64,000 bases of DNA from Henricia sp. BOLD:AAB3569. Taxonomy: Eukaryota > Echinodermata > Asteroidea > Spinulosida > Echinasteridae. The notes under the pieces were generated by a model, which worked only from the letters and a program-made list of their open reading frames with translations, was not told where the DNA came from and did no database searches. Shown here one piece after another: positions 641 to 60,992 of the stretch. The stretch lies in contig JBBELK010000529.1 of assembly GCA_037783545.1 (NCBI GenBank), positions 186,001 through 250,000 of the forward strand, read 5' to 3'. A program made the position numbers and the translations under genes. The number at the start of each line of letters is the position of its first letter. The stretch's first letter is position 1.

Positions 641-660
641 CCCCCCCCCCCCCCTCCCCC

Positions 661-5536: not shown

Positions 5537-5558
5537 AGTACTGTAAACATTTCTTTAA

Positions 5559-6600: not shown

Positions 6601-6604
6601 TTAA

Positions 6605-6727: not shown

Positions 6728-6731
6728 TTAA

Positions 6732-10140: not shown

Positions 10141-10635
10141 GTTACTGTGCTGACTTACACACGAGTTGGTTTTATCATACACATCTGTAATCACACGTAG
10201 ATATAACACCGTTTTTAACCACTTGATGCCAAAGGACGTGTAAACGTGTTCTGGCAATCATAAATCACAGGGGCGGTTGACTGCATTAGTGCAAAGTAGG
10301 ATCTTTTGGTGAAAAGATTCATGCAACTTAATGTAGAAATGACTCTCAAGAGTCGGTATTTGTGGTGCTTGACCTGGTCTTAACTTTTAGCCAATCACAT
10401 CTGCCTTTTTAAAATTAATGGTATTTTTTCCAAAATAAATAATCTCGGTGTCCAGTTTTTAAATCATGTATTGATCATGTTAGTTTGGTAAATTAAAAAA
10501 TAATAAAGTAAAGAAAAAGGACAACAATTGTAATAAAATCTTCATTTTCTTGAGTGAAATCCTGTCATTTTCAGCAAGTGATTTTTTTCAAGTTTAGATC
10601 TTTTGATTCAGAACATTGCTCAAAAGATTTGTTGT
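10141..10635. other. Intergenic stretch, nothing recognised
   Basis: A+T-rich, with no exon or repeat family recognised before the MITE that follows. Confidence 0.35.
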
Positions 10636-10639
10636 TTAA

Positions 10640-10741
10640 AGGCACAGGCTCGTCAGCAATGCGTACGCGCCAAATTCGTGCCACGAAATACGCAGCTCCA
10701 TGCCTTTGCTATAAAGCTGCATTGCTGACGAGCCTGTGCCT
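10640..10741. repeat. TTAA-flanked foldback MITE, family 1, copy 2
   Basis: A 102-bp copy with intact TTAA at 10636-10639 and 10742-10745. It has lost part of one arm relative to 6605-6727 but keeps both AGGCACAGGCTCGTCAGCAA tips. Confidence 0.8.
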
Positions 10742-10745
10742 TTAA

Positions 10746-12050: not shown

Positions 12051-12280
12051 CCAATCAGAAACCAGCACAATGACAATGCAGGGTCAGCCCACATTGTGTT
12101 GACCAATCGTGTCTCTTTGAGAAAAGTTTGCACCAATCACAGTGCAGCTTGCCCAAGTGGATGGACCCTGGTCTCTTTTTTTGGTTTTGTATACATGGTT
12201 TTGTTTAATTCTTAGTGTCAGCAATTGTATGCAAATGAGTTTGAGAGGGGTATAAAATAGAGCGGCCCTAACTCCAAAGC
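12051..12280 (+). promoter_or_regulatory. Vitellogenin core promoter: CCAAT boxes, octamer, TATA box
   Basis: TATAAAA lies at 12251-12257 in a GC-rich frame (ggggTATAAAAtagagcgg), so transcription should begin near 12281, giving a 5' UTR of about 70 nt. Upstream are three CCAAT motifs (12051, 12103, 12133), an ATGCAAAT octamer at 12229-12236, and two nuclear-receptor-like half-sites facing each other, GGGTCA (12081-12086) and TGACC (12100-12104). A strong TATA promoter fits a highly expressed, tissue-restricted gene. Binding by any factor is not shown. Confidence 0.75.
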
Positions 12281-12352
12281 AGAGAGACACGGGGAGAGAG
12301 CAGTTCAGGATTTGCAGTTTTATCAGTTTTGTCTCTGGATTGCACAAAAATC

Positions 12353-34800: not shown

Positions 34801-37800
34801 TTTTATTGATACAGTTTTAGCATAATTATTTTATAACAAAATCTCTCCTAAAAAAATGCATAAAAACAACATCATTGTAAGACAAATGACGATGTCCCCA
34901 TCGTGCCTGGTTTCAAAATTTAGCTCAGGATTCCCTTCCAGAAAAGCCCAAAATCTTATTTTTACCAAAATTTACCCATGTGACTTTTTACAGATAAATC
35001 AGGAATGTTGCAAATGCCAAGACTACACAATCAGCGCCAAATATAAACTACGGTTAAAGGCGTCGCCCAACGCATCAGCAAAACCTGTTTAATGCCCGGA
35101 TTTCCAATGTTTTATTTTCATTTCTTGTCATTTTCAGGAAATTGACGTGAAGTGGTTGTGGGGAAGTCCTAAGACGTACAATATGAAGATCAACAACACT
35201 GATACACGCTTCTTACGCGAGTATTTCCTACAGATTAACAGCCAGAGCTGGGCTAGAGACAACACTCGTAACATCACAGTCTTCTGGGCTGAGCTGCCCG
35301 AGTGGCTCAAGAACGTGAGTATCGCAACTTTGACGTCTTTTTCCACTCTTTCTAAATCACCTTGGACTACCACAGTGAACTAAACCTTTTTGCCATTTAG
35401 AACCGGCGGGGCCCGGGCCCTTAAACTGCAAGGGAAACGGCCGGCCTTGCGGGACCCATTTAGACAGGGTGCCGTGTGTCTGGGGGATCCTCCATAGCCC
35501 GCCTCCCATGGGATTCTCCTGGAAAACTGCCCAGAATCGGTCTACCATAATACTTCTATACAATGGTTCTTCAATCCTTTTCAAATGTCTCTTATTCTTT
35601 TCCAACGTGATAATTGTTTCTTCTGACTCCAAGTTTTTACTTACTCCACAATTCACATGATTATTGTTGATTACTACCTATTGTTTTATATATTTACATA
35701 TTCCCGCCGTGAATATGGCCACTGATGCCGGCACGGCGCTAAACCCAAAACTCACTCACTCACTTTTTGCCATTTAGAGGTGGTATCATAGTTGAAAGGC
35801 TGCATGAAGGATTCGCATTGTCTCAAAATCAACCATTTGATCGGGGAAACAAAATCATTCTCAAATGGAAGTTAGAAGTAGTTACTATTATATACCTCAT
35901 ACATTGATTCTCGTTCACTGATTGGTTAAACGCAGATCACGCGACATGGATTAGTTCAACTATTTCAGTGGGCAACTGAAAAAAGTACTATTGTTTGACC
36001 TATTGCGCAATATTTCATAGCGCATACGCAATCGCGCGAGCGTGTGCCATGCGCCAGCGCGCGGGAGACGTGTTCGCGTGCATGAAGCAACTAGCAGTGG
36101 ATAATGTGCACTTCGGCTTGGCTCTCTGAAAACTGAATTTTGTCCTGAAAATACCAATCATTTGACACAAACAAATCAATGTATGAGGTATATAAAACAA
36201 ATATTGACTGCTTTTATTCGGGTGATGATGCAAACTACCGCCCCTCGGTGATCTTGAAACGGCAGTCCTGCTATTTTCCCTCGGCCTGCGGCCTCGGGAA
36301 AATAGCAGGACTGCCGTTTCAAGATCACCTCGGGACGATAGTTTGCACCATCACCCTCATGAGCATTCAATATTTGTATACTGCCCAATGCAACGATTCC
36401 GCCCGATATGATATATTTTTAGAGAAAACAACAATTGAAAATGAGTTTATATACCGGGTAAAATGTCTATGCAAATTTTGCGAATGTAGTTGATGAAATG
36501 TCGTCTTCAATTTTCTTGCCAGGCGACTTACCTAACCAAGAAGTGGGTCCTCCCAGTTGTACTGGAGACAGTTAAGAAGACCAACGGGGTTGATTACTTG
36601 TATGAACCTCTCAACAATACCTTGGTGAATTCCACAACCGTCTCTCTCAAGGTTAGTCACACTTACAGTCAGTCACTACTCAAGTATGACTCAACTTTTA
36701 ACAAAAATCTCAGGACAAACACTTGCATTAAAAAAGGGCAAGAAATTATGAATTAAGATTTGTCGGCAATTTCAGAAATTCAGATTTTTACATTTCAGAG
36801 ACTTTGAGGTCTCGTAAAGGCATGGTCACACAAACGCCAAGTTAACATTTAATTCCGAAATAGATATACATGCATCTCTATTTCTGATCAGATATATTTC
36901 TATTAGAAATAAAAGATACAAATGCGGACAAATGTCCATGAGTTTGGGAAATCTGGATGCAGTGAAAAGCAACTTGGCTCCACCGGGATTCGAACCGCGG
37001 ACCTTCTGCTTAACATGCAGACGCCTTACCAATTGAGCTATGAAGCCAACTGGTGGTCTCGAATCATGGTAGTGCAGTTGCTCCTCACTGATTGGGATTG
37101 ACTATCACGTAAGCTTAGAAAGCACTACAGAGGGATAAATAAACTTTCTTTTGTCTCGTTGGTTTGTGACAAAGATTATTCCGGGAAAAACCGGAACAAA
37201 TCACATCCCTGTTTTATGCACTAATGCGCTACACGTGCAACCAAACAAAACCGGCTAAATCCAGTGTGTGAGATGTATGTAATAATTTGCTTGAGTGTGC
37301 TACCCTGATTTTTAAAAGTTAAATAAAACACTTAGCCAAAAGGAACCATTTGAATACCAAATATGCTCGAGTATTTCACTTAAGTACAAACTTAGCCACT
37401 GGTAAATTGAATACCGATTTTGGCTAAGAAATTTGCTTGAGCCAAAATCTAAGTAAAATTCTTACATATTTGATTTAAAGTCTTGAAATGTTTATTGCCC
37501 CAGATCAAGACGAACTACACCATGGATGTGGAGCTCCACCTTCCCATTGAGAAGATCACACTGGTCAATGTAACGATTCCAGTCAACACCTCGGTCTTGC
37601 ACCACAACATTCCCAAGGCTGTTGATGTGATCCAGAGGCGCCTCACGGAGAAATACCTGTCTGGTGAGTTGATTTTGTGTTTGTGAGTTGATTTCATGCT
37701 CTTGTATTATATTATGACCGAGGATAGATAGACAATGGGATAACAAAATGTCCTCGATCGTCTTCTCTTTTGTTCGAGCTGGTCCTTAATCGTACGTTCA

Positions 37801-39285
37801 TGTGCTTTGTCTCGGGAAGACAGTTAGAGTACAGGAACAAATGGAAACACAAAGGATAGACGTCATCTTTTGTTAGTTGCCTAGGCAATGGCTCTTCTCT
37901 AAAAATCACTAAACCGTGTCCCTGTGCTTTTGCGATAGTACATTTTCCGACGGCCATGATGTTTAGAGTCGGTTACCATGGCAACCCATGTCACACTTCA
38001 GCTGTCTATTGTCCTTATTCGTAAATGTGTCTGTTTTCAATACTAGAGAGACCTTTTCCTCCAGGATTATATCACTGTACAATGTCATTCATCTTCTCTC
38101 AAAACAAAAGAAATATCTTAAGACAGATCTAAGTAGATAACTTCAGCTAAAGAACTGCAACGAATAGTGCCACAACATACCTTCCTGAAAGCCGTGTGTG
38201 CAAATTTCCAATATACCGTATGTAACAAGGACACCAAAAAATGTGTCCTATGTTACATACATTAAATATAAAATTTGTACACCGGGTTTTTAGAAAGGTA
38301 TGTTGTCGCACTATTTGTTGCTTAAGTTATCTCCTTAGATCTGTCTTAAGATATTGCTTTTGTTTTGAGAGAAGATAACTGGCTTTGCACAGAGTATAAA
38401 TGATACTGGTGAAAAAGTCTCTCCAGTATTGAAAACAGACTTATATATTACTTGGTTGCAAGATTTGGATTCTCTCGGAAAACCTGAGGGGAGTATTCCA
38501 CTTTAGCTCAGTATAAGATATGAAGGAGACCCCTACACACATGTGTATGGGAAAAACCCACAGAATCAAGCAGGGACTGAGAACCCAATCCACATACTGA
38601 TCGAAACGGGATTCGAACCAGGGCCACAGGGGTGAAAGTTGAGGAAAGTACCACTTCCGCTACTTTAGTTCATACATTGGTGAGAGCACGTGTGGCCTAG
38701 TGGGTACACAGACGTGCTCGTGATCGATGGGTTATGGGTTTGAGTCCCACTTGTGCCAATGTGTTTGTGTCCATGAGCACCTAATCTCAATTACCTCATC
38801 AACCCAAGCGATGTTTGGGGAGCTGTTAGGGGGAATGCCACAATCTAACTGCTGATAGAGTTGTACGCCTTGGCCAGGCTGCCGGCCTTGTTGAAGCAAA
38901 ATTGTTCTGGTGATTTCCTGATGGCGCCATGATCTTAATGGAATGGTGCTATATAAAAACCTGCTATTTCTCTATTTTATCCAATGGGGCGACACTTTTT
39001 GTGTAGAGAGCCCTATTAGGACGACACGCTCTAATAGGTCGACAATTTGGTGTAGCCCCAATATTTTGGAAGTCAAAATCAATTTTTTTAGGTCAAAATC
39101 AATCTTTTTCAAATCGAGAACCATTTTTATTAGGTCTAGAACCGTCTCTCTTAGGTCTGGAACCATATTCGGAACCTTTGGGTAACAGAATTTTGGTGTT
39201 CAATCGATGTCTTTTAGCCAAAATTTCAGTGGTAGTTTGGTAAAGTCTTACCGGCGTGTCGTCCCTTTGCAGCATTATTAAGTGA

Positions 39286-44974: not shown

Positions 44975-45416
44975 AGTTGCACTGCCCGTGTTTGGGCCTA
45001 TTTGGGCATACAATTTTTTTGTTTAAGTTAAATAGGTTTTTTTCTAGAATAGTAAAAGTTATCAGCTTTCATTTGGTATCAAGAACGTAAAAATCCGTCA
45101 AGGATTAATGCCAGTCGATTAAAAACAAGAAATGATTAAAAGGCTGGCAGGTCAATTAATCGACAGGGTTATGACGTAAATGTACATGTGCGCGTACATG
45201 TGTACATTGTACACATACTATGTACATATGAGCGTACGCGCACATGTACAACATGTGAAGCACGTTTCAAGAAAAAGGCTTGTATCTCCAATTCCCGACG
45301 TCGGAAATTTAAGTTTTTGATATTTTTCGTTACAGAGACACGTAAGCTTTCTAAATTCGTTCGCTTGTGTAAATTAATTTTTTTTATCCTTTCACCGAAA
45401 CACGGGCAATGCAACT
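44975..45416. repeat. TTAA-flanked element, family 4
   Basis: 442 bp, ends AGTTGCACTGCCCGTGTTT and AAACACGGGCAATGCAACT, with TTAA at 44971-44974 and 45417-45420. Inside is a palindromic run of ACATGTGCGCGTACATGTG-type repeats at about 45180-45260. Confidence 0.7.
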
Positions 45417-45799
45417 TTAACCCACTTTTATAAAGCACACATTTTTGCTAAACAGCTTTATGAAATTGGCCCCAGGTCTCGAATCGCGGTGAAAGCTCAT
45501 CGCTGATAGGTTAAACGCCATTACCCATTCGTGAGCCGTCGTTGATAATACATTCCTAAGATGTTTTAAAAATAACAATAGGAACAGGTGTACTCTCAGA
45601 TGCTATGTGGGTGTCTGCTTGGGCGATTCCACGCTGGAGTCGAGTAGAATCGATTCCACGCTGGAGTCGAGTAGAATCGATTCCACTTTAAGAATCTGAG
45701 TCACTATTCCAAACTTTCAGGAATCGATTCCTTTTATCTAGATTCGATCCCCAGTGATAGGTTGCCGAATGCCGATTCTTAGAAATTCCGGAACCAAAA

Positions 45800-45930
45800 T
45801 ACACGGGTTTTGCCGTCTTCCTTTCGCAAGGGTCTTTGCTGCACCATGGAGGCACGCTGCACACCGAGTTACCGAGTTTCCGGTGTGCAGCAAAGACTCT
45901 TGTGAAAGGAAGATGGGGTTTTGCAAGAGT
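45800..45930. repeat. Palindrome within a GATTC-repeat region
   Basis: Arms 'tcttcctttcgcaagggtctttgctgca' and 'tgcagcaaagactcttgtgaaaggaaga' surround 'ccgagttaccgag'. The surrounding 45620-46050 has repeated GAATCGATTCC words and an approximately 30-bp direct repeat 'cgattccacgctggagtcgagtagaat'. Confidence 0.65.
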
Positions 45931-46450
45931 ACTCTGCTTGGTTCTGATATCATATCATGAATGTTCAGTACCGCTCAGTGCCACTTATGGAATCGATTTC
46001 GGGTAGCTAGAATTGCGATCGATTAGAATCGGAATCGATTCCAAAAATGCTGTCCAGAGTCGCCTAAGCCCGCGTTTCCATTTTTCGGTTACGTAACCAT
46101 GCACCGCATTCCGGACGCAGTGAACCGTGGAAGCAGCAGGTAGATTTTGCGACAGACTAACTGCCGACGGCCGGTCAAGATGCTGGTGATGATACGGGAC
46201 GTCCTCGACAATCTACGCTAGTGGGATTTTTAGGTACGTAAACTACGATTGTAACGGTTATCCTATTCCTATGTTTTCATGCTATGTGGGAATGGTAAAG
46301 ATTAAAGTTTTTCTGGGTCTTTTACTAGTACCTACTTGAAGCATCCTCCATGCTTGAAGAAGGGAAAAGTAGTTATGTGGGGTTCGGGATTTAAAATACG
46401 TGGGTTGAGTTAGACCATAGTCAGCAAGGAACAGTTCCTTGCTCTGTGGT

Positions 46451-46611
46451 TAGACAAGCTTAGTATTACCTGGCTCGAATTTTTTCATGTGGTAATCTCT
46501 AAAAGATTAGGCTACCATGCACATGAACAATTTCGAGCCGAGGTAATTACCTTGTAACCTTGTCTAAAAGATTACCACATGAAAAATTTCGAGCCGAGGT
46601 AACCTTGTCTA
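46451..46611. repeat. Inverted repeat around GGCTCGAA
   Basis: 'gtattacctggctcgaattttttcatgtggtaa' at the left and its complement 'ttaccacatgaaaaatttcgagcc.aggtaa' at the right. A third copy of the same arm lies between them. Confidence 0.55.
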
Positions 46612-46896
46612 GGGTTGAGTGAAATGAACTTGTTATGATTCCTTGCTTATATTAATGGGGCTTAATCAAGTAACCATCCTTCTAATCTGATTGTTGTTTT
46701 CGCTTTCAGAATGGAGTCGTGTACTACCGTATGACGGCGGCTTCTTGGAAAAGGTAAATTGCGGATCTGTTAAAACTCTTAATTGGAAGAAATTCCTGAA
46801 AGATTTTACTTTAATACCTGCACTTTCAACTCTTTGTACAAGTCTTATGGACTTCATTAACAAAATTAAGGTTTTTTGTTATTTTATTTGTTTAGG

Positions 46897-47268
46897 TTGA
46901 ACAAAGATGTTAAGGAAATTACCTCCTGGAATCAATAGATAATCCAATTTTAAGATATATGTCCCACTTGCACTTTTGTCGGAAATGTTGCATTTCTGAG
47001 ATAAATAAATAATAAAACTACCGGTACTGCAGAGAGTACTAAGACAAAATCACAGCGAGTAAGCGCGACAATAGAGGCCGCTGCATTCAAGCGTAAATGG
47101 TTCATCTTGTGCACCAACTAAATGCAATTTTTGAAGAAGAAAATGTCATTTTTATTTAGAAAAGCAACATTTGCGACAAAATTGCATTTGGAAACTGGAA
47201 AGTATATCTTAGAATTGGATTATCTGTTGATTCCAAGAGGTAATTTCCTTAAAATCTTTGTTCAACCT
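46897..47268. repeat. GGTTGAACAAAGAT foldback
   Basis: 372 bp with ends GGTTGAACAAAGAT and ATCTTTGTTCAACC, and longer inner arms ('aaggaaattacctc.tggaatcaa'). It would lie inside the candidate transcript's intron. Confidence 0.6.
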
Positions 47269-48252
47269 ACTAAACAGTTTTTATTCAGGCTAAAATAATA
47301 TTTTCACAACAAAATTTTACTTTTTTAGCGGAAGATAAACTGTATGAATGAAATAATGCAGGTATTTAAGTAAAATAGGAAATAATTCTGTTTACTGGCT
47401 GCCACTTAATCTCCTTATGACTTAATAACCATCAAAATATTTGAAAGAGAAGTGAATTGTGCAGTAACAAACATTCACAAATTTTCTCGAAAATACTGCC
47501 CTGTTCCATAGATTTAACACACGGCGTCTCAGTGGCAACCAGTGAACGGAATTCATACCAAAACAAATTCTGATCATCTTCTCAACTTTTACCGAAACAT
47601 GAATTTTATAGTGGATAGTGTAATTTTTGAAAGAATTTACAAGTCGGACATCACATAAGCTTTCCTGCACTAAACCCATCGGACAACTGGGAATAATTCC
47701 CGGTATTTTTTCCCTTATACATTGAAAATACATTGCGTAAGCGCGACATAAGTTATTTTAAAGGAAAACAATTCTGATTAACTTCTCAACTCTTAACTAG
47801 AATTCTCTTATTTAATCCGCATAGGAACAATTAAAATTACCACAAAAAAATAATTAAACAAAAATGATGAGGCTATTTTGAATGATCATGGTTAGGGTTT
47901 TGGGAACCTTTTATTTATTTTATTAACAGCAATACTTTGTCTTTTCTCCTCAGGTTTTTGATCACCAGCCAAGGGTCCAGTTTAAATGTAAGTATCATAT
48001 AGTCTCTATTGTAACTTTAAAGATGCATTGTTTGAGCTTGGAGCCAATTTTACCATGAATATCTGGGCATGCAATTCTTAGGTTGATGTTAATTATATAA
48101 ATAGTACTGGAGTTTTATACATTCACCACCAAAGTAGGTACCTATATTGTTCTGTGTGGAGAGGCAATTTATGGTAAAATGCCTTGCCCAAAGGCACATC
48201 TACAACCTTTTGAATTAACCAAGGTATTGAGTACATGACACTTGACTGTTTG

Positions 48253-49353
48253 TACTTTTAGAAGGCTAAAAGTGTTTATTTGACATTTATATTGGGATGT
48301 TATCATTTTTATGTTACACTTTTAGCCCCTTAGCTTTTGAACCCCCATTCGTTGTGTTGAATTTTCCTGCACGACCAAGATGGCGGCCTTTCTGCAAAGT
48401 GAAATTTGACCTTCCAGTCAAAATTAAACATTGAAAAACTTACCATGGAAGACCCTGGAATCTCCAGAATGTTGTACCGTGGTCTATTCTCCCCGATAAT
48501 TCTTTTAAACAGGAAAAAAACTAGTCCAACGTCATTTTTCTTGACATTTTCCGAGCATACTGAAGGGAATAGCGTGATTTGAAGATTAACCAATTATTGC
48601 AAAGATATACCGCCCTCTTGTGGTCACCTCATTGTACTGCAGTGAGCAAGTTCGGGTGGGCGACTATGGGTAACTAGACTAACCTACCCCAGATGCTTGG
48701 TTCCTCTAGTCAGACTAGCTAGTCAAACCACGCAGCGTTCGGGTGACATAAAGCAAGTTCGGGCGGGTGAATATAGTTAACTAGACTAACTATATTCGAA
48801 CTATAGATGTCACTCGAATGCTGCGTCGTTTGACTAGCTAGTCTGACTAGAGGAACCAAGCCCCAGGGGTAGGTTAGTCTAGTTAACTATAGTCGCCCGC
48901 ACTGCCCATACCGACTATGGTTAAGTCTAGTCGCCCACCCGAACTTGTTCAGTGACGTCATACAATGAGGTGACCACAAGAGGGCGGTATATCTCCACCC
49001 TGGTTGGTTGTGCGCGTTCGAGTATTACATCCCGCTATTCTCTTCAGTATGCTCGGAAAATGTCAAGAAAAATGACGTTGGACTAGTTTTTTCCTGTTTA
49101 AAAGAATCATCGGGGAGAATAGACCACGGTACAATATTCTGGAGATTCCAGGGACTTCCATGGTAAGTTTTTCAATGTTTAATTTTGACTGGAAGGTAAA
49201 ATTTCACTTTGCAGAAAGGCCGCCATCTTGGTCGTGCAGGAAAATTCAACACAACGAATGGGGGTTCAAAAGCTAAGGGGCTAAAAGTGTAACATAAAAA
49301 TGATAACGTCCCAATATAAATGTCAAATAAACACTTTTAGCCTTCTAAAAGTA
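48253..49353. mobile_element. 1.1-kb near-perfect palindrome with 9-bp target duplication
   Basis: The element begins TACTTTTAGAAGG and ends CCTTCTAAAAGTA. Its outer 100 bases on each side differ at a single position, and complementarity continues (with a few indels) almost to the centre near 48,803. Flanks are GACTGTTTG at 48244-48252 and again at 49354-49362. A 9-bp duplication and very long terminal repeats fit Mutator-like (MULE) foldback elements. There is no transposase. The near identity of the arms suggests recent insertion or arm conversion. Confidence 0.8.
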
Positions 49354-49362
49354 GACTGTTTG

Positions 49363-50801
49363 GATATCTAAATTTCATATTAAAATTGACCCAGAATTTT
49401 TTTTTTTTTTTACTTGGTTTATTGATCATAAAAAGGCAAATCCTGGGTGTCCGTGCATGGTAATGAACCCCACGTATATTTTGAAGGAAAGAACTAACCT
49501 CCAAATTTAAATCTTGTGGCAAAAAGTAAAACTAAAACAAAATTGGAATATGTGGCCCTGCAATGACATGAAAGAAACTTGGCTTGAGAGATGATGAAAA
49601 TCAATACCTGCATTTTCCGGAAACCATTAGTTTTTGATAATTTTAAAACTAATTAAGTTGGGAAAATAACTAAATTATTGGCCTTTTCGCAATTTCATTG
49701 CTTGAGAAATCAGTGGCAAAATCAGTGTACACAAATAAATTTACTGATAAATTTCTGGTGTCCTTTAATAGCGCATTTCATGTCTCTTGACATCTCAATG
49801 CGAACCACCTCAATATTGATACATAGATCGGCAAGTGGCGGCTAAGCCAGAGAAATTGGGAAAATTCCCCTTCTCTTCCGAAAGAATGTTCTAGGATCTT
49901 TAAGATGCATTACACAATACTGGACCTTGGGCTTTACATCCCATCCACAGGATGGAGCAATTGGGGTAAAGTGCCTTGCTCAAGGGCACAAGTAGTCTGA
50001 AAACCACAACCTTCGGGTGTTTCCACCTGAAGTTTGTAAGTTAATGACCCAAACTGCCACGATACTTATAACTCATTCTGCAAATTACATGTACCTGCAC
50101 TATGCTATTAAAGAAGAAAATATAGCAACGTATAATCCGTATATCATCCTGAAACCTGTGCACATCAAGTTGAATTTGCGAAAAGGCTACATGAATACAT
50201 ACATCGACTTCACCTACTCATCTGTGTCAAAAGTCGGAAGGTTCCATGGCCACAATTTTCATTCAGACATGCTGGTAAATGTACAGCACAAAATCAAATA
50301 TGTTTGGCATGTAGATTAAACAAACTTTACTTATTGCATGTGCGAAGGGAATGAATTTACTTGCTGAAGTGGTTTAACATTGGAGTACAAACTGCATGTT
50401 ACAACATGAACCGTCTGCCATTATAATACATGTATTCCAGCAAACATATCAACATTCACTGTCCTTATAGGTACCCATTTACTCCTGGGTGGAGAGAACC
50501 CACATTTAGAATTAATCATTAGGGAGGTTTTCGCACCGTCACAGATACTGATACGTCATGACTTTATGCGCGTCTCGTGACGCGTAACCGTATATAGTAC
50601 ACATGTTTTCATATGCGTGAACCCACCCCTGTTTTCCGCTATACTACACATCCCCCAATCGATTAATCATAACAAATGACACATCACTGTAAAGAGGAAT
50701 AACAGGGCTTTCCAATGATACAAATTTCAAGGGAAATGATTTAGTAACAAGAGAAAAATCGTCAGTCAAACTTGACTTTCCGAACTTTTTTTGAGGAGTT
50801 A
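49363..50801. repeat. Gene-poor stretch with SINE pieces
   Basis: 49850-50005 matches SINE family C on the - strand ('gatggagcaattggggtaaagtgccttgctcaagggcac'), and 50468-50503 has 'ggtacccatttactcctgggtggagaga'. The short open frame across the SINE edge is not supported as a gene. Confidence 0.45.
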
Positions 50802-51031
50802 AGCATGGTAGTCATCTACAGGGGGCACCTTATAATAGTACATGTACAGCATTTGTTTCAAATTTTTCTGAAAGTTCCTTTTTACAGGGGGAAAATGTAT
50901 GTTACGTGTGTGACGTCAGAAATGTCACACACGTAACAGACATTTTTCCCTGTAAAAAGAAATTTTCAAGTAAATTTGAGACAAATGCTGTATTATTATA
51001 TAAGGTGACCCCTGTAGATGACTTCCATGCT
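50802..51031. repeat. Foldback of 230 bp
   Basis: Arms begin AGCATGGTAGTCATCTACAG and end CTGTAGATGACTTCCATGC. The inner parts 'acagcatttgttt', 'ttacaggg.gaaaatgt' and 'gttacgtgtgtgac' pair with the other arm. It lies about 230 bp before the candidate exon at 51261. Confidence 0.7.
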
Positions 51032-52129
51032 ATATTAATGCAAAAGTATTCACCAACAGGAAATTTATTGAACATAATACAGTTCAAAAAGCTACACATG
51101 ATTTCCAGCTAAAAAGTACTTTTTTGTACGACTGGTAAACTGTTTTAGGCAAATGGAATAAGTTATGAGAAATTTAACTCAAAAATCATTTTGTTTTGGT
51201 ATGAAATGCATTGTAAATTGTGTTGATCTGAAATTAATTGTTGTAATTTTCTTTTTCAGAAATGGGAGCTCATGATGTTGCAGTCAAGTCCACCACAAGT
51301 CCCTGGGTCTTAATTCAAGTCACAGGCTACTCAAATGAATTCAACAAAGGCATTCGTTTGTGCATGCTCATCCTTTGCTTCTGGACGTTTGACTACAACC
51401 TCGGTTCCAGACGGAATAGTTTTTAAATCTTTTCGCGAGTGATGTCTTTGTGCCGTGGTACGTCGTAATCTGGAACAAATTGCCGATGGTATTGTCAATT
51501 GGGTATGTAGACAGAAAACTTGAGAAAGTCAATTTTCAGTTTATCGTCATGTTGTTAATAACAATATGTAACTTAATTGTGATTTACCAAGTTACAAATG
51601 TTGTGTTTTACTGATTTGTTTCTTGAAATTGCAGTTATCGTTTGTAATTATATTTTCTTGTTTTACAGTGAATGTTTAATAAATCATTTTAATTGTATTT
51701 CTTTGTACACCATTTTTATTAATGTTTTCTTTAACAGTTAAAGGAGGGAAACCTCCACTTCAATACGTTAGAAAATCGTACAGGGGGCAACCCCTGTTCG
51801 ATTTTCAAATTTAAAATTTGGACCACCGAACCCTGGACTATCTGTAAAGACAATAGCAATTAGGACCTTGCATAAATTAAGTTAATGAACATTTTACTTG
51901 AATATATTACTTGGTTTACTTATTGGAGTACAGAATAAAATGAGACTTGTTTACAAATGAAACTTTTGTTGTCAGTGACTTTTATTTTGACTTTGGAAGT
52001 TACTTTAACTACAAATAACACTACTTAAATAAGATTGTTTACAAACATTACTATATTTGTTAAAGTACATTTAACAATGCTACAAGAGAAATAAATACAA
52101 TTGGTTGTTGCTAAATAAAGACAAGAATA

Positions 52130-52580
52130 TTAAGTACAAGTCAATGTTTACAAACTGATAGTCATTTTTTGAGAAAATAATTTGAGCAAGTTTTGGTTTG
52201 TTTACAAACTGATAGTCATTTTTTGAGAAAATAATTTGAGCAAGTTTTGGTTTGTTTACAAACTGATAGTCATTTTTGAGACACTGAAGAGTTGTGTGCT
52301 TAGGGATGGATAGAAGATTCAATGTTTACAAACTGTTTTTGGAGAGAGGCTTGAACAAATTTAGGACAGCTTGTTTGTTTACAAGCTGTTAGTCATTTTT
52401 TTGAGACATTGAAGAGTTGTGCTTAGGAACTGACTGTAGGATGGATAAAAGGTTTTCTTCTGTTGATTCAATGTTTACAAACTGATAGTCATTTTTGAGA
52501 CACTGAAGAGTTGTGTGCTTAGGGACTGATAGATGGAAGGTTGAGTTGATTCAATGTTTACAAACTGTTTTTGGAAAGAG
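52130..52580. repeat. 54-bp tandem repeat and diverged relatives
   Basis: TTTACAAACTGATAGTCATT recurs at 52147, 52201 and 52255 with an exact 54-bp period, and in looser form at 52330, 52375, 52475 and 52555. As 54 is divisible by three, an 18-residue repeat opens on the - strand. Confidence 0.75.
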
Positions 52581-55500
52581 GCTTGGACAGCAGAGCTTCT
52601 TGTTGTTGCTTTGGGTTTTTTTTGGGATCTCTGTGGCAGAAGGTTTAATATCATCCTGATTTCTTCAACTTGTGTCTGCGGGGGGAAAAGTAAAAAGTTT
52701 TTAAACAGTATAGTAAATATACAGATGGCACAAATGCAACATTTCCATATTTGTTGAATCAGATAATGTTTTTCTATGCTGTAAACTCAGGCATGCAACT
52801 GTGTTACAAGGGAAATACAAACAAATCTCCGACTTTGTACAGTGTTTTTTAAATTTTCGATGGTGCAGATGAGGAAAAGTTGCATGCCTGTAAACTGCAA
52901 CTTATAAAGGCCCAACGGTCATTTTTCGAAAACTGGAGATACTTCATACAGTAAAGAGGGCATTTTGGCAATACAGACCATATTTTCGAGAAAATACCTT
53001 TGTCTGGTCTCAAAATAAAAGAAATAAGTTTCAGTTGTTCTGAAGAGACAACTTAGGCCCAAAAAGGGTTACAAATAGTGTGACAACATGCCTTTCTAAA
53101 AACCCTGTGATCAAATTTCCAATATACGCTCGTAACCGGGACAGACACGAATTACGAGTGTATATTGGAAATTGGTATACAGGGTTTTTAGAAAGGCATG
53201 TTGTCACACTATTTGTAACCCTTTTTGGGCCCAAGTTATCTCTTCAGAACAACTGAAACTTATTTCTTTTATTTTGAGACCAGACAAAGGCATTTCCTGG
53301 AAAATGCCAGTATATTGGGGCTCACCGTTGGTCAATCTTGGCCACTCTGAAGACTATGCAGTGAGGTCTGCCAAAACAGATCTTGAAAATATTCAGCTCC
53401 TGGTCGACATCGCTTGGCACAAACGTCTTTGTCACCTGTCACAAATTAAGAAATCATAAACGACTACGTTATAAAATGCTGCAAGTTTAGAGAAAATTAA
53501 AAGTTGATGAATTTTTCAATTTGGCTGGAAAAATGAAGACACGTTAGGTGAGAGGCATTTCCGCAAATATTTGAATGTGTAGTGGAATCTTCCCCAATGA
53601 GTGTTCACTGTATAAACTGCAGGCTACATTCACAATCAGAGTTGATTGGGATGGTAGAGACGACCCTACCGGGGTACATCAGTATGGATTTTCAGCAAAG
53701 ACAAAGATTTATAATTTAACTTTGAAACGTACCAAAACAGGTTGGAAACTGGCAAAAAAAATTTTGCTGATTATTTCTGAGACATTTTTTAAAAAGTCAT
53801 ATATTTTTATGCCGATTTGTGCAAATAACTGCTGGACTAACCCCTTGTGATTTAAAAAAAAAATTATTGTCATAAAATTGACCCAAAATGGATTTGCAGT
53901 AAAGATGAACAGAACAATGGACTGTGACTTACTGATACTGTAGGTCAACACTGGCCAGATTTCTTCTCCCAGCAAATCTCAACATGATGGGTGGTGCATA
54001 TGAACAGTAGCCACAGACTAAAAGGGAAAGAAAATATATAAGTTAACTAAGTTACAGTACTTACAAATCAGAGCTACATGTAAGACTTCAAACCAAATAT
54101 CTAACACTAAAGTGGAAAATGTGTGGAGGTATGAATGAACTTAATGCATTTTATGAAAGCAGAATTGATCCAAACAAAAGATGGTTTATTTTAGCTACAG
54201 TGTGTAGTTCATCTACACTGCTACAACCGCAGCAATGCTATCATCTAACTAAATATGACGGTGCCAAAACAAAAATGTGTGGCCTGTCTAATATGTTTGT
54301 CAACTTGTCCAATTCCTTTCTCGTTTTAGTGAAAGCAAATTTTCAGTTTGCGTACATACGCATTGGCTTGGACCCTCGCCCCCTGCCACCCTGTACGCAA
54401 TGTCAACAACAACACCACCCCCCCCCCCCCCCCCTCCTTTATGGACGGCCCCTAACAGAGACATGATGATCAACAAAACAAAGTTTTCAAAAATCTTTGA
54501 AAGGTGTATTCAACTCTTGTAGCTTTTTGGCTGGAAGTAAATGTTTTTGGACTCTTGAGCCACTGTGAGTAACATGCCGTAGTAGAAACAAACATATTTG
54601 GGAAATATGGTACCGGTATGTAAATGAGCAATTTTTAAAATTAAAATTTTGATAAGGATAGTACACCTGGTGTCAGTATTAACTCATTCCATTCAATGCA
54701 TTGGGGCATTCTGGGTAGCATCATGATGAAACCATGGCCACTATGTGACTCCTAAAAATTAAAACTGGAACTCAGTTTCAGGGGTATACACCATGCATGA
54801 ATAAACATGAGAAAATATTGGGGCATTCTGGGTAGCATCATGATAAAACCATGGCCATGATGTGACTTCCAAAAAACAAAAAGGGAACTCGGTTTCAGAG
54901 AGACACCATGCATGAATAAACATGAGAAAATATTGGGGCATTCTGGGTAACATCATGATGAAACCATGGCCATGATGTGACTTCCAAAAAACAAAACTGG
55001 AACTCAGTTTCAGAGGGACACCATGCATGAATAAACATGAGAAAATATTGGGGCATTCTGGGTAACATCATGATGAAACCATGGCCATGATGTGACTTCT
55101 AAAAAACAAAACTGGAACTCTGCTTCAGGGGAACACCATACATGAGCAAGGGCAAAATAGTATATTTAGCATGCTGCAGTGACATGTAAATGAGTAGCAG
55201 ATTTGCATAATTTTGATTAAGGCAAGAACAGTACATCAATATGTCAGTATTAATTAATGGTGCAGTAATATGTAAATGAAGCATTTATTTGCATAAATTT
55301 GAATACGAACAATTGAATACTACACAAACTATTAAAGTTAAATGCCTGCTGCAAGATAGACTACTCTACCAGGGGCTGACCTCCGTAGAAATTCAAGGTG
55401 CCATTTTAGTAAGCAAACTACCGGTAGATGCGCCTCATGTCCGTTTGACATGACTCTCGCGGTTGCTGATTTTTTTCTTATCCCATAGTTTGGTTGTTTC

Positions 55501-57034
55501 ATTTCAATGGTGATTAGGTACAATACCAAACATTGTGTTTGTTACTTTGCTCAGTTGCGGTCCCATGCAACAATATGAGAACAATTGGGTTCTTGGGGGA
55601 AAACCTGAGGGAGTATACCACTGTGCCTTATAGCTCAGATGGTAGACATGCAGGGTAGACCGTCTGCCTGGTGTGTCATAGGTCTTGGGAAAAATCCGAG
55701 GGTGTACATGTATACTACTGTGCCTTATAGCTCAGCTGGTGGAGCATCTGCCCGGTGTGTCAGAGGTCTTGGGGAAAACCCGAGGGAGTATACCACTGTG
55801 CCTTATAGCTCAGCTGGTGGAGCATCTGCCCGGTGTGTCAGAGGTCTTGGGGAAAACCCGAGGGAGTATACCACTGTGCCCTATAGCTCAGCTGGTGGAG
55901 CGTCTGCCCGGTGTGTCAGAGGTCTTAGGGAAAACCTGAGGGAGTATACCACTGTGCCTTATAGCTCAGCTGGTAGAACATCTGCCCGGTGTGTCAGAGG
56001 TCTTGGGGAAAACCTGAGGGAGTATACCACTGTGCCTTATAGCTCAGCTGGTGGAGCGTCTGCCCGGTGTGTCAGAGGTCTTAGGGAAAACCTGAGGGAG
56101 TATACCACTGTGCCTTATACATGTAGCTCAGCTGGTAGAGCATCTGCCCGGTGTGTCAGAGGTCTTGGGGAAAACCTGAGGGAGTATACCACTGTGCCTT
56201 ATAGCTCAGCTGGTAGAGCATCTGCCTGGTGTGTCAGAGGTCTTGGGGAAAATCTGAGGGTGTATACCACTGTGCCTTATAGCTCAGCTGGTAGAGCGTC
56301 TGTCTGGTGAGTTAGAGGTCTTGGGGAAAATCTGAGGGAGTATACCACTTTGCCTTATAGCTCAGCTGGTAGAGCATCTGCCTGGTGTGGCAGAGGTCTT
56401 GGAGAAAATCTGAGGGAGTATACCACTGTGCCTTATAGCTCAGATGGTAGAGCTTCTGCCCAGTGAGTCACAGGTGTCAGGTTGGAATCCCGATAAAGCC
56501 CTTACGACTTTTCTCTCATCCCAAGTGTGGATGCCGCTGTACATGTAACTATTCGCCGCGACACAGATTACACTACGAGAGGCATGTCAAACCGACACAA
56601 GGCGCGTCTAGTTTGCTTATTACTAAAATGGTGCCTTTACATACTTCACTTTATTGAATTGATTCCGCATGGGTGGGCTATCTTGCACTTTTGCTGCTAT
56701 ATCATCTTTGAGGAAGCCCTACCCATGCATGCCTATAAGCGGAAGCTAGACAAGTTTTAATACAGTGGAAAGTCACCATAAATGGGCATCGTATCTGAAC
56801 CATACAAGTGTTTGTTTTGGTGGCGTTTGACGCGAACAAATGATTGGGAGCCATGAGCGATGTTCACTGTAGCTGAATGTTCTTTTTGGTGTTCATTATA
56901 GCGAATTTCCACTGTAATAAATTGGAATAATGGCCAAAAACTCACCTCTCCTGTGTTTTCAGTATCCATGGCAACACGTCCATTTTTGTAGTGTGTAATA
57001 TGAAGCTCCACAGTCTGTGGGCTCCATCTCCAAT
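52475..57034 (-). CDS. Weak candidate: 3' exons of an unrecognised - strand gene
   Basis: Four segments have - strand AG...GT borders and an open frame: 57034-56946 (WRWSPQTVELHITHYKNGRV...), 54017-53933 (CGYCSYAPPIMLRFAGRRN...), 53435-53326 (VTKTFVPSDVDQELNIFK...) and a last one 52675-52475 ending in TAA. A TTTATT (AATAAA on the - strand) is at 51981-51986. The phases do not all join as drawn, so exons are missing or some of these are chance. No family is recognised. Confidence 0.2.
52930..53310. repeat. Full foldback with AGGGTTTTTAGAAAGGCATG arms
   Basis: Left arm (about 52970-53125) and right arm (53150-53310) are near-perfect complements, including 'gtctggtctcaaaataaaag' and 'tgtgacaacatgcctttcta'. 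Half and related copies are at 40770-40955 and 38037-38445. Confidence 0.75.
54701..55140. repeat. 115-bp tandem repeat, four units
   Basis: TTGGGGCATTCTGGGTA starts units at 54701, 54818, 54933 and 55048. Each contains 'catcatgatgaaaccatggcca' and 'ccatgcatgaataaacatgag'. A poly-C run (54418-54434) lies just upstream. Confidence 0.8.
55490..56530 (+). repeat. Second 78-bp tandem array of tRNA-like 5' halves (11 units)
   Basis: Eleven 'tatagctcagctggtggagc' units between about 55630 and 56505. They are preceded by the SINE 5' part also seen at 31073 ('tttgttactttgctcagttgcggtcccatgcaac'). Only the last unit runs on into a B-box-like GGTTGGAATCCC and the 'tttctctcatcccaagt' tail, so the array is one SINE whose tRNA 5' half has been multiplied. 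The 223-residue open frame at 55639-56310 is produced by the 78-bp period. Confidence 0.85.
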
Positions 57035-57040
57035 CTGTGA

Positions 57041-58079
57041 ATACATAATGAAAAAAAATTAGCAACTGTGACAGAAATGCAACCAATCCAGGCTTTGACA
57101 TTAACCAAAGTCACCAAGGCAAATGGCCTCATGCCCTGCCGAGTTGGCCCCGATGCCCCTTCAAGGTACACACTTTCTGTAAAGCTATACTTTCTGATAA
57201 GCTGATAGCAAAAAAAGGACATGTCAAATTGACCTCTCGTGCTCCTTGATCCTGTTTTGCATCTTCCATTTTTATGCGCAAGTTAATTTTAGCTTTGTTT
57301 ACAAAACTAGCCCCTGTTTAGCCAGGTGTGAAATTCCCAACATGATGACGACGTTAATGAAAACTCGAAACCTATGTCTACCGATATTTCAATATTTGTG
57401 AGCCAATTTTCTAAAAATACTACAATTTTCATTTTATCTACAATTTTATGAGTGTCTACTTTTTCTGATACACCCTGTATAACTTCAAATGTTGATAACT
57501 TAATATATCTTCAAGCAAACTTGAATCCGTCGTTTTGATTGGTGGATCCATGGCAACCAACAGTGTGATAATGTTTCATGTAATACTCTTCCGATTCTCA
57601 TATTGTACTTGCAGAGTGTGCGTGTTATTAGTGCGTCAATTTTGCTTGAAGATAATATTAGTTATCCCGCGAGCACGAGTGGAATACGGCATTATCATGA
57701 TTATGTAGGAACGTGACAGTCAGATGTCACGTGACCACATTCGTGTGACTAACTATGTTCCTTTTTTTGTCTGTCGCCTGAGGTGTATGATTTTTAAACA
57801 TTTATATCTGGGAGGTTTTAATTTTGTCAAAATTAGTTAGTCGTACATTATTACATAATGAAACTATTTATAGCCGGATACCCAAAATTTTGGAATCGTC
57901 CAGATTGTACTGTTACATTGTTTTAAATTTAAATAAAGAAATTTATATTGATAAAATTCTCACTTTGTCTGTTTTGTTAGTTCGCTTTATTTGTATTTCT
58001 TCTTTCAAACAAACAAATAAGAAAGAAAGAACCTGCAGTAAAACCCCCGTTGATCATTTTAAATTTAATTTGCTTAAGG
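57041..58079. other. Gene-poor stretch
   Basis: 57090-57170 shares 'aaatggcctcatgc.ctgc.gagttggccccgatgc' in inverted form with 23735-23800, so it is an old repeat. Otherwise no exon or RNA gene is seen. Confidence 0.4.
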
Positions 58080-58195
58080 GCGGTCTGGTTGGCGTAGTGG
58101 TTCTTTCCTCGCCTTTCCTCTGGCGTACCCGTTTCAAATCCTGGGCGTGTATGTGGATTGGGTTTACACCTAGAACTATGGGGGATAAATAATGT
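58080..58195 (+). repeat. SINE family A tRNA-like head
   Basis: 'ggtctggttggcgtagtggt' (A-box-like) to 'cgtttcaaatcctgggcg' (B-box-like), then 'atgtggattgggtt', the complement of the family A body at 2890. Confidence 0.5.
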
Positions 58196-58438
58196 ATCGC
58201 CCATAGGTAATGTTTTTTTCCAATATGGCGGCGCCTAAACTTTAAGATCGGACAGAAACGTTTTCGGCTAGCGCAATAATCCGCTGCCCAATCGCCACCA
58301 AACTCCGTCTGATAGTTCTTGAGACACTCACCTTGCGTGTGTCTACAGAATTTCGGTACCATTTGTCCATTAAATTCTCCTTAAAAAATGTTGGGAAATG
58401 AACGGGAACATGTGCGATGCGTCAACATTCGTGATCCA

Positions 58439-58556
58439 GGCATTCGGTAAAAGCCGGAGTTGCCGGAACTCCCGGAGTTGCCGGAACTGCTTGGATTTTT
58501 TATTGGTCCCAGCTGTTCCGGCAACTCCGGGAGTTCCGGCTTTTATCGAATGCCCA
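58439..58556. repeat. Small GC-rich palindrome GCCGGAGTTGCCGGAACT
   Basis: 'gcattcggtaaaagccgg' pairs with 'ccggcttttatcgaatgc', and 'agttgccggaa'/'ttccggcaact' inside. It lies inside the larger foldback. Confidence 0.65.
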
Positions 58557-58572
58557 GGGCTCGAAATAGACT

Positions 58573-58735
58573 GCCGAAGTGAATACGTCACCTTTTGTTG
58601 GTTGCCTAGGCAATTGGATCTAAACTAAAAATCACTCAACCACGTCCCAGTGCTTTTCCAATGGTACATTTCCCGACGGCCATGATAGTTTAGATCCAAT
58701 TGCCATGGCAACGCACGTCACACTTCGGCTGTCTA
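58573..58735. repeat. MITE with GCCGAAGTG ends, copy 2
   Basis: Ends GCCGAAGTG and CACTTCGGC, with inner 'ggcaattggatctaaact' and 'agtttagatccaattgcc'. The same family is at 37858-38010. Confidence 0.65.
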
Positions 58736-59086
58736 TACCCACTGGACCAGTGGACCGAGGCCAGTAATTTAAGCTTCGGTCTAGTGCTTTCTCTACCTTA
58801 CTAGAACCAGAGGTCCAGTGCATTTTTAAACTAACGAACAGTAACTCCACGTTCTTTGTGGCTTTGGTCTTGTAAAAATAGCGTCGGTCCAGCAGATTTT
58901 TTCATGAAATTCGAGCCCTGATGCCTGGATCACGCATGTGGACGCATCGCACATGTTCCCGTTCATTTCCCAACATTTTTTAGGAGAATTGAATGGACAA
59001 ATGGTACCGAAATTCCGTAGACACACGCAAGGTGAGTGTCTCAAGAACTATCAGACGGAGTTTGGTGGCGATTGGGCAGCGGATTA

Positions 59087-60992
59087 GGCTAATGAAACTC
59101 GATGTTATGTTTCCCGTAACATTTTTGTCAAGCCCAAATGAGGCAACTATTTCATTATTCATTATTCATTATTTTGTAGCATTTCATTATTTGCAAATAA
59201 CGGCTATTTGATCAAAACTTAGCGCGCTCCATACTCTCTGATAGTGTGTTAAAACACAACCCTGATCAACTTATACACAAATTTGTATTTATTAAAATAT
59301 CTTTCACCATTTCTCAGGTATTTATGACAAATTTATTTAAGGATCAAGATATATTTAAATAACAAAACACATTTATATCAGTCCACACAATTTAAATGGG
59401 AATTGCACCCATGCTTTTCTACCTTTATTATACCCCCTTCCTGTATCTTCAATTATACACAAACATTTTATTTGTCTCACATCATACAACCTTCTCCAAA
59501 ACACGACAGAAAACGATGCGATTCTACGCGTCGACGGTACCTAAAAAGTGTTCAAGTACGTACGATGGCCCATTTGTGGTCCGCGCGCCGCTCGCTAACG
59601 ATAAATACAATCGCCCATTTGTAGTTTGTGTGTTAGTTCTAAGCTAGCACTTATACAGCTGGGTCATCAGTCCATGTCAAATCACCCAAAAAAATTGACA
59701 TTCTAAACCCGACCCTCTTGGATTTTGGTGAAACTTTGTATACTTGTTGATTGGGATCCCACAGCACCAAATATCAAAATTTAGATCAATCGGACCAGTG
59801 GTTCCGGAGGCAAGGTCACCCGAATGTTTGAATTTTTGGCTAAAAGTGGCACGGACGCCCACCTTTGAACCCTAGTATCTCGGGAACTACTGAGCCAATC
59901 TTCACAAACGTGGTGTTGTTGGAAAGGTGATTAGTCAAGGATTCCAAATTTGCCATTATTTTTTAGATTAAAGTATGTTGGGGGTGTATTAACCTTTGCT
60001 ATGACCTCGAATTTGACCTTGTGGATCACGTGACCTTAAAATGACCTTTCCTGAAATTTAAAAAATTCGGGTGACCTTACCTCCGGAACCACTGGTCAGA
60101 TTGATCTAAATTTTGATATTTGGTTCTGGTTTCCTACTGTGTAAACACCCTTTACAGATTTATAAATACACAGGCGTAGTGCTGGCAGCAGATATTTAAT
60201 TTATATGGGGGTGAGCGCGGCTAAGAAGATCCCCAATGTCCATCTTCATCAAACCGGATTTGAAACTGTCAACACAGTTGGTGACTCTTTGATGGATGAC
60301 GGGAGGAGGTTCCACTCAGGGATTGTGTGTGGAATAAAAGAATATTTGTAACAGTCCTTTTTGGTGTGAAGTGCGATGAAAGATGAATTTGGTGCACAAC
60401 CCCTCGTAACCCTTGAGGATGATTTTGGCATTTTGTCATCTTGAAAGGCCATCAGGTTGTTGGTGACTTTGTACAGGAAAGTGAGTCTGCTTACTGATCT
60501 TCATTCCTCCAAGGGTTTAACCCATTGGGTGATTTGACATGGAATGACCCAGCTACAAACCACGGATTTAACAACTACGATGGAGTGGACGGTCTCTATG
60601 TAATTTGTACAGCAGCGCGCCGGACTTGCGCGTGTACGGTTTTGCACACCGGGTACATGCATCACAAAAATGGCAGCGCAATGTCTTCTCCAGGAATTTA
60701 TTGTTGACGTACCGCCGGCCAGCCGCGCCGATACTCTGCTTCTGGGGTATTTTGTTTTATGGAGAAAGAAAATTACGTTAACATTTTTTTTGAGCACCAC
60801 GCCCAAATTGTGAAATTCGAGCGCTGCTTTTAAAAATCCAACAAAAATGGCAGGAGAAAAAAATTTAAAACTCGATATTTTGAGGGAAAATACAAAATAA
60901 TGAATTGTTTAAGGATTTTAGCATCTCAAACGCAACCGAAAAATCCAAACGCGGGCGGGTTACGGGAAACATAACATCGAGTTTCATTAGCC
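59087..60992. mobile_element. 1.9-kb TTA-flanked element, PIF/Harbinger-like, no transposase seen
   Basis: Terminal inverted repeats of at least 34 bp (GGCTAATGAAACTCGATG ... CATCGAGTTTCATTAGCC) with TTA at 59084-59086 and 60993-60995. Because it split one arm of a palindrome, the other arm (58265-58295) shows the empty site with a single TTA. Inside are a second inverted pair (about 59655-59690 and 60522-60545) and a LINE fragment. No transposase frame is visible. Confidence 0.75.
60249..60515 (-). pseudogene. Fragment of a LINE reverse-transcriptase C-terminus
   Basis: The - strand frame reads SVSRLTFLYKVTNNLMAF, then CYKYSFIPHTIPEWNLLPSS. These match the typical end of jockey/CR1-like LINE polyproteins (R-L-x-x-L-Y-K-I/V then a Tyr-Ser-Phe-x-P-x-T-I-x-x-W-N-x-L-P motif). 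A stop codon interrupts the frame upstream, and the rest of the polyprotein is absent. Confidence 0.6.

What the first reader, a model, noticed from the sequence alone, without database searches (positions are those of the whole stretch)
48253..49353. Nearly perfect 1.1-kb palindrome with an intact 9-bp target duplication
The two arms, each about 550 bp, match almost base for base, and GACTGTTTG sits directly on both sides. This is a clear transposon insertion. The 9-bp duplication and very long inverted repeats point to a Mutator-like foldback element without coding capacity. Any read-through transcript would form a long double-stranded RNA, a possible source of small RNAs.
Basis: partly seen in the sequence, partly recalled or inferred. 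Interest (0 to 1): 0.7.

Follow-up and report, generated by a model that had tools for sequence, protein, structure and literature searches.

The report
High-copy foldback transposon, nested palindrome inside
A hairpin-shaped, gene-less jumping DNA element, one of perhaps a thousand copies in this animal genome, landed here and was later hit almost exactly at its centre by a second, smaller palindrome; it is an ordinary kind of transposon whose two arms appear to have evolved together.

Summary
The element is exactly 48253-49353 (1101 bp), flanked by GACTGTTTG at 48244-48252 and 49354-49362. The arms match 98% over the outer 300 bp; further in they carry gaps. It is not one insertion: other copies of the same insertion, and independent copies, are about 790 bp or less and lack 48646-48949, a second palindrome inserted at the centre with a 5-6 bp repeat. 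It is no assembly artefact: the window's own 740.7-Mb genome has 2041 copies of the 22-bp end (one mismatch allowed; reversed control 0). Of 32 two-ended copies read (26 sites), 24 (20 sites) have exact 9-bp duplications; three have clean empty sites. So it is a large family of non-autonomous, foldback-shaped DNA transposons. A Mutator-type transposase is the best guess but unproven: the genome has MULE transposase domains, yet none of the 19 found has these ends within 1.5 kb, and no autonomous copy was found. Over the 26 sites the two arms of a copy differ by 6.3% on average, against 14.1% when arms are re-paired between copies (0 of 10000 shuffles as low), though in seven copies the arms differ by more than 10%. 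An ordinary kind of element; a useful natural experiment.

The parts
48244..48252 (.). left target-site duplication GACTGTTTG
48253..48645 (+). left arm of the outer foldback element (inner part of type A, ...AACCAATTATTGCAAAGATAT...)
   Evidence: alignment with 13 other copies; boundary from L009/L011/L020
48253..48274 (+). 22-bp terminal sequence TACTTTTAGAAGGCTAAAAGTG, nearly invariant in the diverged copies read (some have up to 4 mismatches)
48264..48327 (+). subterminal inverted motif GGCTAAAAGTGT ... ACACTTTTAGCC (further repeats of the CTTTTAG end motif); candidate transposase-binding sites
   Evidence: kept in most diverged copies aligned, not in L075; binding role inferred
48377..48387 (+). 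AAGATGGCGGC in left arm, reading inward (YY1-like motif, name recalled); possible promoter element
   Evidence: 0.01 expected by chance; motif chosen after seeing it; function inferred
48640..48645 (.). CAGTGA, left copy of the repeat flanking the nested palindrome
48646..48949 (.). nested second palindrome (ends GCAAGTTCGGGTGGGCGACTA / TAGTCGCCCACCCGAACTTG), present in window, L010, L012 and absent from L009, L011, L020 at the same insertion
48950..48955 (.). CAGTGA, right copy
48956..49353 (-). right arm of the outer foldback element (inner part of type B, with CGCGCACAACCAACCAGGGTGGAGATAT)
49219..49229 (-). AAGATGGCGGC in right arm, reading inward
49332..49353 (-). 22-bp terminal sequence, right end
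49354..49362 (.). right target-site duplication GACTGTTTG
45548..52224 (.). surrounding stretch found again, with the same insertion, on contigs C669, C204, C210, C801 and C1720 (pieces 90-99% identical); outer limits set partly by the ends of the fetched stretches; paralogues or in part alternative haplotypes

Best explanation
The feature is one copy of a high-copy, non-autonomous DNA transposon family of foldback shape (its closest relatives are about 790 bp; pairs of ends elsewhere span 450-1030 bp). A transposase supplied from elsewhere, most likely of the Mutator (MULE) superfamily, recognises the conserved ends (22 bp nearly invariant, about 100 bp conserved, with three CTTTTAG motifs per end) and inserts the element into a staggered cut that becomes a 9-bp duplication. 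This copy inserted at GACTGTTTG; the locus came to lie on at least six contigs; in one branch a second palindromic element of about 300 bp inserted at the centre, giving the 1.1-kb palindrome. In the source elements the two arms are rewritten against each other (gene conversion or snap-back repair), so subfamily variants tend to appear in both arms; inserted copies afterwards mutate arm by arm. Shown: family, ends, 9-bp duplications, empty sites, absence of the inner palindrome from other copies, likeness of arms within copies beyond chance pairing. Inferred: that the inner palindrome is a transposon, the MULE transposase, the mode of arm correction, any promoter or small-RNA role.
For: 2041 ends with at most 1 mismatch in the genome, reversed-pattern control 0; 26 close inverted pairs among the 100 ends listed (my count). 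24 of 32 two-ended copies with exact 9-bp duplication, 20 distinct; left flank of one copy equals right flank of another in 23 of 992 pairings, all of which fall within shared sites by my count. In the 12 whole copies fetched from the listing (contig order, not ranked by similarity; all have both intact ends by the way they were found) 10 of 12 are exact. Clean empty sites with a single copy of the 9 bp for L057 (in this window, 58332-58523 and 58921-59031), L026 and L060. Nested palindrome absent from L009, L011, L020 and from the independent copies aligned. Arms: over all 26 sites of the table the mean within-copy difference is 0.0631 (median 0.037) against 0.1407 when right arms are re-paired, 0 of 10000 shuffles as low; in 17 chosen copies 0.0263 against 0.1310, 0 of 10000; among 8 near copies 0.0262 against 0.0327, 2 of 5000. 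MULE domain: 19 hits in the genome, all over the Pfam cut-off; one of them, L034, lies between short-repeat inverted ends with a 9-10 bp direct repeat.
Against: No copy read encodes a recognisable transposase; none of the 19 MULE-domain loci (1.5 kb each side) has the 22-bp end with up to 4 mismatches or a similarity at E 0.01; only two 2-mismatch matches to the 13-mer turned up there (L034, L044). A 9-bp duplication alone does not exclude Merlin or others, and the search for a Merlin-type domain did not complete. The arms are not built of tandem repeats as in classical foldback and many MULE ends. 8 of 32 copies lack an exact 9-bp duplication. Against arm correction: in seven of 26 copies the arms differ by more than 10% (L015, L021, L026, L061, L065, L066, L069; three of them truncated or interrupted), the own right arm is the nearest right arm in only 14 of 26, and the duplicated group itself shows no significant pairing (351 of 5000 shuffles), which fits correction only before insertion.
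Confidence: 0.78

Rival explanations
1. Same foldback transposon family, but moved by a transposase of another superfamily that makes 8-9 bp duplications (Merlin/IS1016-like or similar; duplication lengths recalled).
For: No autonomous MULE partner found; one copy with an 8-bp duplication (L063).
Against: Long inverted ends and a near-constant 9 bp fit MULEs best (passages of PMC6446971; PMC5225508); MULE domains are present in the genome.
Confidence: 0.2
2. The palindrome is an assembly artefact (read chimera or hairpin misassembly).
For: Long palindromes are known to be hard to assemble (general knowledge).
Against: Same ends and structure on many contigs with different 9-bp duplications and empty sites; six contigs carry this very insertion.
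Confidence: 0.02
3. The arms carry the end of a transposase or other gene (an outward frame with a GT...AG stretch, or the inward frame), so the element is a relic coding element or a gene-capturing MULE.
For: Open outward frame of 87 codons in the left arm and a plausible 52-nt GT-AG stretch; the frame gave 150 matches in the genome, the 150 scored of 1526 candidates, as expected from the DNA repeat alone.
Against: No credible Pfam match, no solved relative (best E 1.3), no confirmed relative in viral contigs; differences by codon position 175/98/159 in the outward frame show no third-position excess in either frame (arms not independent, and little of the frame aligns in several subfamilies).
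Confidence: 0.05
4. The inner palindrome 48646-48949 is an old part of the element that was deleted in the other copies.
For: It is palindromic too and sits at the centre; no copy of it elsewhere was seen, because the genome search for it did not complete.
Against: Independent copies with other flanks have the uninterrupted centre (TACTGCAGTGACGTCATACA in L016 and, in the other orientation, L022), and the longer copies carry CAGTGA twice.
Confidence: 0.07

Closest known systems
Mutator-like elements with long inverted ends, e.g. Muta1 of Aedes aegypti and its non-autonomous derivatives (PMC5225508, passages seen)
   Same: 8-9 bp duplications, long inverted ends with short end motifs, many non-autonomous derivatives (over 300 reported for Muta1)
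   Different: no transposase-coding partner found here; end sequence different; no 12-bp tandem repeats in the arms
Tm1 Mutator/foldback family of root-knot nematodes (PMC3169594, abstract, outline and one section seen)
   Same: non-coding copies with 9-bp duplications and long inverted ends; the two ends of a copy on average 93% identical
   Different: Tm1 ends contain 1-9 units of a motif of mostly 14 bp; low copy; a transposase-coding copy is known
Galileo (P superfamily foldback of Drosophila; PMC2775673, passages seen)
   Same: long inverted ends, non-coding copies, nested secondary insertions
   Different: 7-bp duplications with a fixed consensus; internally repetitive ends
MITEs in general (recalled)
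   Same: short, non-coding, inverted ends, very high copy number
   Different: longer than most and palindromic nearly to the centre

Membership tests
Mutator (MULE) superfamily | target-site duplication of 8-11 bp, mostly 9 | tested here: met
   24 of 32 copies, 20 of 26 sites, exact 9 bp
Mutator (MULE) superfamily | long terminal inverted repeats | tested here: met
   12 list-order copies have arm identities of 0.78-0.97
Mutator (MULE) superfamily | autonomous relative with the same ends and a MULE DDE transposase | tested here: inconclusive
   none of 19 MULE-domain loci has the ends within 1.5 kb; only 100 of 2041 ends were listed, with 1 far pair, whose flanks are inverted copies of each other
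Mutator (MULE) superfamily | MULE transposase domain present in the same genome | tested here: met
   19 matches over the Pfam cut-off
Foldback (FB) elements in the strict sense | inverted arms built of short tandem repeats | tested here: not met
   no tandem array in 48253-49353
Galileo / P superfamily | 7-bp (P: 7-8 bp, recalled) duplication | tested here: not met
   9 bp
Merlin superfamily | ISXO2/IS1595-like transposase in the genome with these ends | not tested
   search for PF12762 sent but not answered
MITE (non-autonomous, structural class) | short, non-coding, inverted ends, duplications, many copies | tested here: met

The most novel reading that the evidence does not exclude
Every round of amplification in this family goes through a snap-back (hairpin) intermediate in which one arm templates the other, so the palindrome is re-made at each transposition; this would explain why variants are born in both arms together, why arms drift apart only after insertion, and why foreign inserts often lie near the loop.
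Probability: 0.12. Interest if true: 0.65.

Novelty: new member of a known kind. Interest (0 to 1): 0.35.

Why it matters
A family of perhaps a thousand near-palindromes in one animal genome is a natural supply of long double-stranded RNA, fragile sites and recombination substrates. One insertion present on six contigs beside many independent insertions lets one compare what happens to the arms before insertion with what happens after, which bears on how very long palindromes survive and spread.

Tried and rejected
Coding capacity: an outward frame with a GT-AG stretch looked promising but has no credible family match (8 pieces given, 7 without any match, one with two matches far below their cut-offs), no solved relative (best E 1.3), no confirmed viral relative and no codon signature. 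Autonomous partner: 19 MULE loci lack the ends; two long copies were read, L048 (2668 bp) and L075 (2130 bp), and both proved to be ordinary copies with foreign inserts; the 14.5-kb pair on C10 has flanks that are reverse complements of each other, so it looks like an inverted duplication, not an element. The 21-bp match at 63317 is short and weak (E 0.06). Viral contigs hold no match to the 22-bp end, one position left free.

Six-frame Pfam scan, what was covered: 45001-60002 in six frames, one plus frame of 40001-64000, 15001-45002 in the three plus frames and one plus frame of 3-15002; the rest was not scanned. One plus frame of 45001-60000 had been left out by a slip and was run at the end.

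Not answered: a copy count of the inner palindrome, of the flank (106, 112, 117, 119, 121, 130), the Merlin domain (107, 125, 131), a second search with a whole copy (61, 64, 66, 68).

Rows left out. Of the duplication table of 32: L013, L017, L018, L023, L024, L028, the first copy in L019, second copies in L014 and L025, and L049-L054 and L056, which lack one or both recognisable ends in the stretch read; C10:457242-458135 (ends only, exact 9 bp) is not in it either. L049 and L051 share the left flank of L026, so they are probably the same insertion. One search used 17 copies that I chose, without L015, L021, L025, L026, L027, L061, L065, L066 and L069, several of which have unlike arms; one search repeats it with all 26 sites, which weakens the contrast (0.0631 against 0.1407 instead of 0.0263 against 0.1310). 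Empty sites: 24 joined flanks were searched, only against sequence already held; spanning matches were found for 6 (L015, L026, L055, L057, L060, L063), 4 were inspected and 3 are clean.

Full report
What was checked. The element is at 48253-49353, 1101 bp, with perfect 22-bp inverted ends and GACTGTTTG on both sides. The outer 300 bp of the arms align with 294 identities, 5 mismatches and a 1-bp gap; inside, gaps of 11, 4, 19 and 19 nt break the match. RNA folding predicts one long hairpin of -865 kcal/mol. Within the window there is no second copy, although some 18 other palindromes, without detectable similarity to it, show up in the self-comparison.

What genome. The window is G000:C529:186001-250000 in an unnamed 740.7-Mb genome of 2104 contigs. 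It holds exons of a vitellogenin-type gene on the plus strand: Vitellogenin_N (E 1.9e-24) and a sub-threshold open-beta-sheet match, a VWD domain at about 39.3-39.6 kb, and lipovitellin as the solved relative (E 8e-6). So it is very likely an animal; I could not name it. The element lies about 8.7 kb downstream of the VWD exon; whether inside the gene is not known.

The family. A search with the outer 267 bp gave 43 matches from the 40 best scored of 1729 candidates. The 22-bp end with at most one mismatch occurs 983 + 1058 = 2041 times, the reversed control 0 times. Of the 100 places listed, 52 form 26 inverted pairs spanning 451-1028 bp, 11 of them 891-896 bp (my count). Diverged copies keep the end and about 100 bp of subterminal sequence and differ further in.

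Target-site duplications. Of 32 two-ended copies read (26 sites: six copies share the window's site, L067 and L068 share one), 24 have an exact 9-bp duplication with 20 different sequences; L011, L020 and L048 have one mismatch, L075 two, L014 and L016 three, L063 an exact 8 bp, L069 none. Equal flanks between different copies occur in 23 of 992 pairings; by my count 21 are in the window group and 2 are L067/L068. In the 12 whole copies taken from the listing in contig order, 10 of 12 are exact. Base counts over the 20 sequences show only a mild preference (T at position 6 in 14 of 20). Three insertions have clean empty sites with a single copy of the 9 bp in related repeats: L057, whose target repeat occurs uninterrupted in this very window at 58332-58523 (89%) and 58921-59031 (97%), L026 (in L055) and L060 (in L026); a fourth, L015 against L031, is 81% identical and not clean at the junction.

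One insertion, six contigs. The window, L009, L010, L011, L012 and L020 share the same flanks and duplication, over 45548-52224 in the widest comparison. They are therefore one insertion copied with its surroundings (some may be alternative haplotypes), not six insertions.

Nested palindrome. L009, L011 and L020 run straight from window position 48645 to 48950, and independent copies have the plain centre. The window has 304 extra bases, themselves palindromic, flanked by CAGTGA on both sides; L010 and L012 have the same insert. With the L010/L012 right end the duplication can be read as 5 bp (CAGTG) or 6 bp (CAGTGA). The insertion is thus derived and sits within a few bases of the centre. That it is a transposon of its own is inferred: the genome search for more copies did not complete. 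Other copies also carry foreign inserts: L048 has a 1.86-kb palindrome with ends TACTTCCAAATACTG and its own 9-bp repeat ATGATTTAC, about 80 bp from the centre (my reading); L075 has 1.34 kb about 36 bp from the centre; L023 has about 0.3 kb in the inner part of one arm; L026 has about 0.4 kb near one end. Four of these five lie near the loop, but the copies were not sampled for this question.

Arms evolve together. In the near copies the inner parts of the two arms are fixedly different (type A and type B) and elements occur in both orientations, so these copies descend from an element that already had two arms. Yet among 8 near copies (window, L014, L016, L017, L022, L023, L026, L027) there are 12 element-sites, at 7 positions (33, 58, 81, 94, 117, 162, 219), where the minority base stands in both arms, against 56 where the arms of a copy differ; 45 of these 56 are at positions where only one copy has unlike arms. 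Within-copy difference there is 0.0262, against 0.0327 when arms are re-paired (2 of 5000 shuffles as low). Over all 26 sites of the duplication table, including truncated and interrupted copies, it is 0.0631 (median 0.037) against 0.1407, 0 of 10000 as low; the own right arm is the nearest right arm in 14 of 26, and in seven copies the arms differ by more than 10%. A first run on 17 copies that I had chosen gave 0.0263 against 0.1310, 0 of 10000. After insertion the likeness is not maintained: in the duplicated group the same arm of different copies differs by 0.0153, unlike arms of different copies by 0.0256, the two arms of one copy by 0.0239, with no significant pairing (351 of 5000). So correction seems to take place in source elements or during transposition. 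One copy, L059, has arms identical over 300 bp, which suggests recent activity.

Superfamily. Nine-base duplications and long inverted ends point to MULEs (passages of PMC6446971 and PMC5225508). The genome has 19 matches to the MULE domain, several in long open frames; one, L034, has short-repeat inverted ends and a 9-10 bp direct repeat. None of the 19 has our end within 1.5 kb. The link is therefore by analogy, and Merlin-like or other transposases are not excluded.

Literature. Text searches for foldback, Mutator-like, palindromic and related terms gave related families but, in the listings and passages that I saw, no report that I could tie to this one; I did not search by sequence in repeat libraries, which were not available. 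So I cannot say that the family is unnamed.

Noticed in passing
window 3340-4599, 31070-31495, 55654-56475: Tandem arrays of 78-bp (and 232-bp) units resembling tRNA sequences; two units at 31164 and 31396 reach Rfam's tRNA threshold.
   Followed up: no
window 17.9-39.6 kb, plus strand: Exons of a vitellogenin-type gene: Vitellogenin_N, a weak open-beta-sheet match and a VWD domain.
   Followed up: partly
window 52267-52359, plus strand: A borderline Pfam match (27 bits, at the cut-off; no single stretch passes) to the Dicer dsRNA-binding domain, next to a 54-bp tandem repeat; may be chance.
   Followed up: no
window, e.g. 52982-53305, 38029-38440, 24934-25234, 50802-51031, 36197-36377, 12904-13044: About 18 further palindromic stretches without similarity to this family in the self-comparison; the window is rich in foldback-shaped repeats.
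   Followed up: partly
L048 500-2355: A 1.86-kb, 94.5% palindrome with TACTTCCAAATACTG ends and a 9-bp repeat ATGATTTAC, nested in a copy of this family: possibly a second foldback family with 9-bp duplications.
   Followed up: partly
L034, L035 (G000 C216 and C808): MULE-domain genes between inverted arrays of about 16-bp repeats (GGTCGTTTCGTACCC); L034 flanked by a 9-10 bp direct repeat, CCTGCATGGC.
   Followed up: partly
G000 C504:607053-644117: Four MULE-domain genes repeated about every 12 kb on one contig, mostly 94-99% alike where they align at length.
   Followed up: no
L065: Mosaic copy: ends of one subfamily, 291 internal bases 95% identical to the window's right half; suggests exchange between subfamilies.
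   Followed up: no
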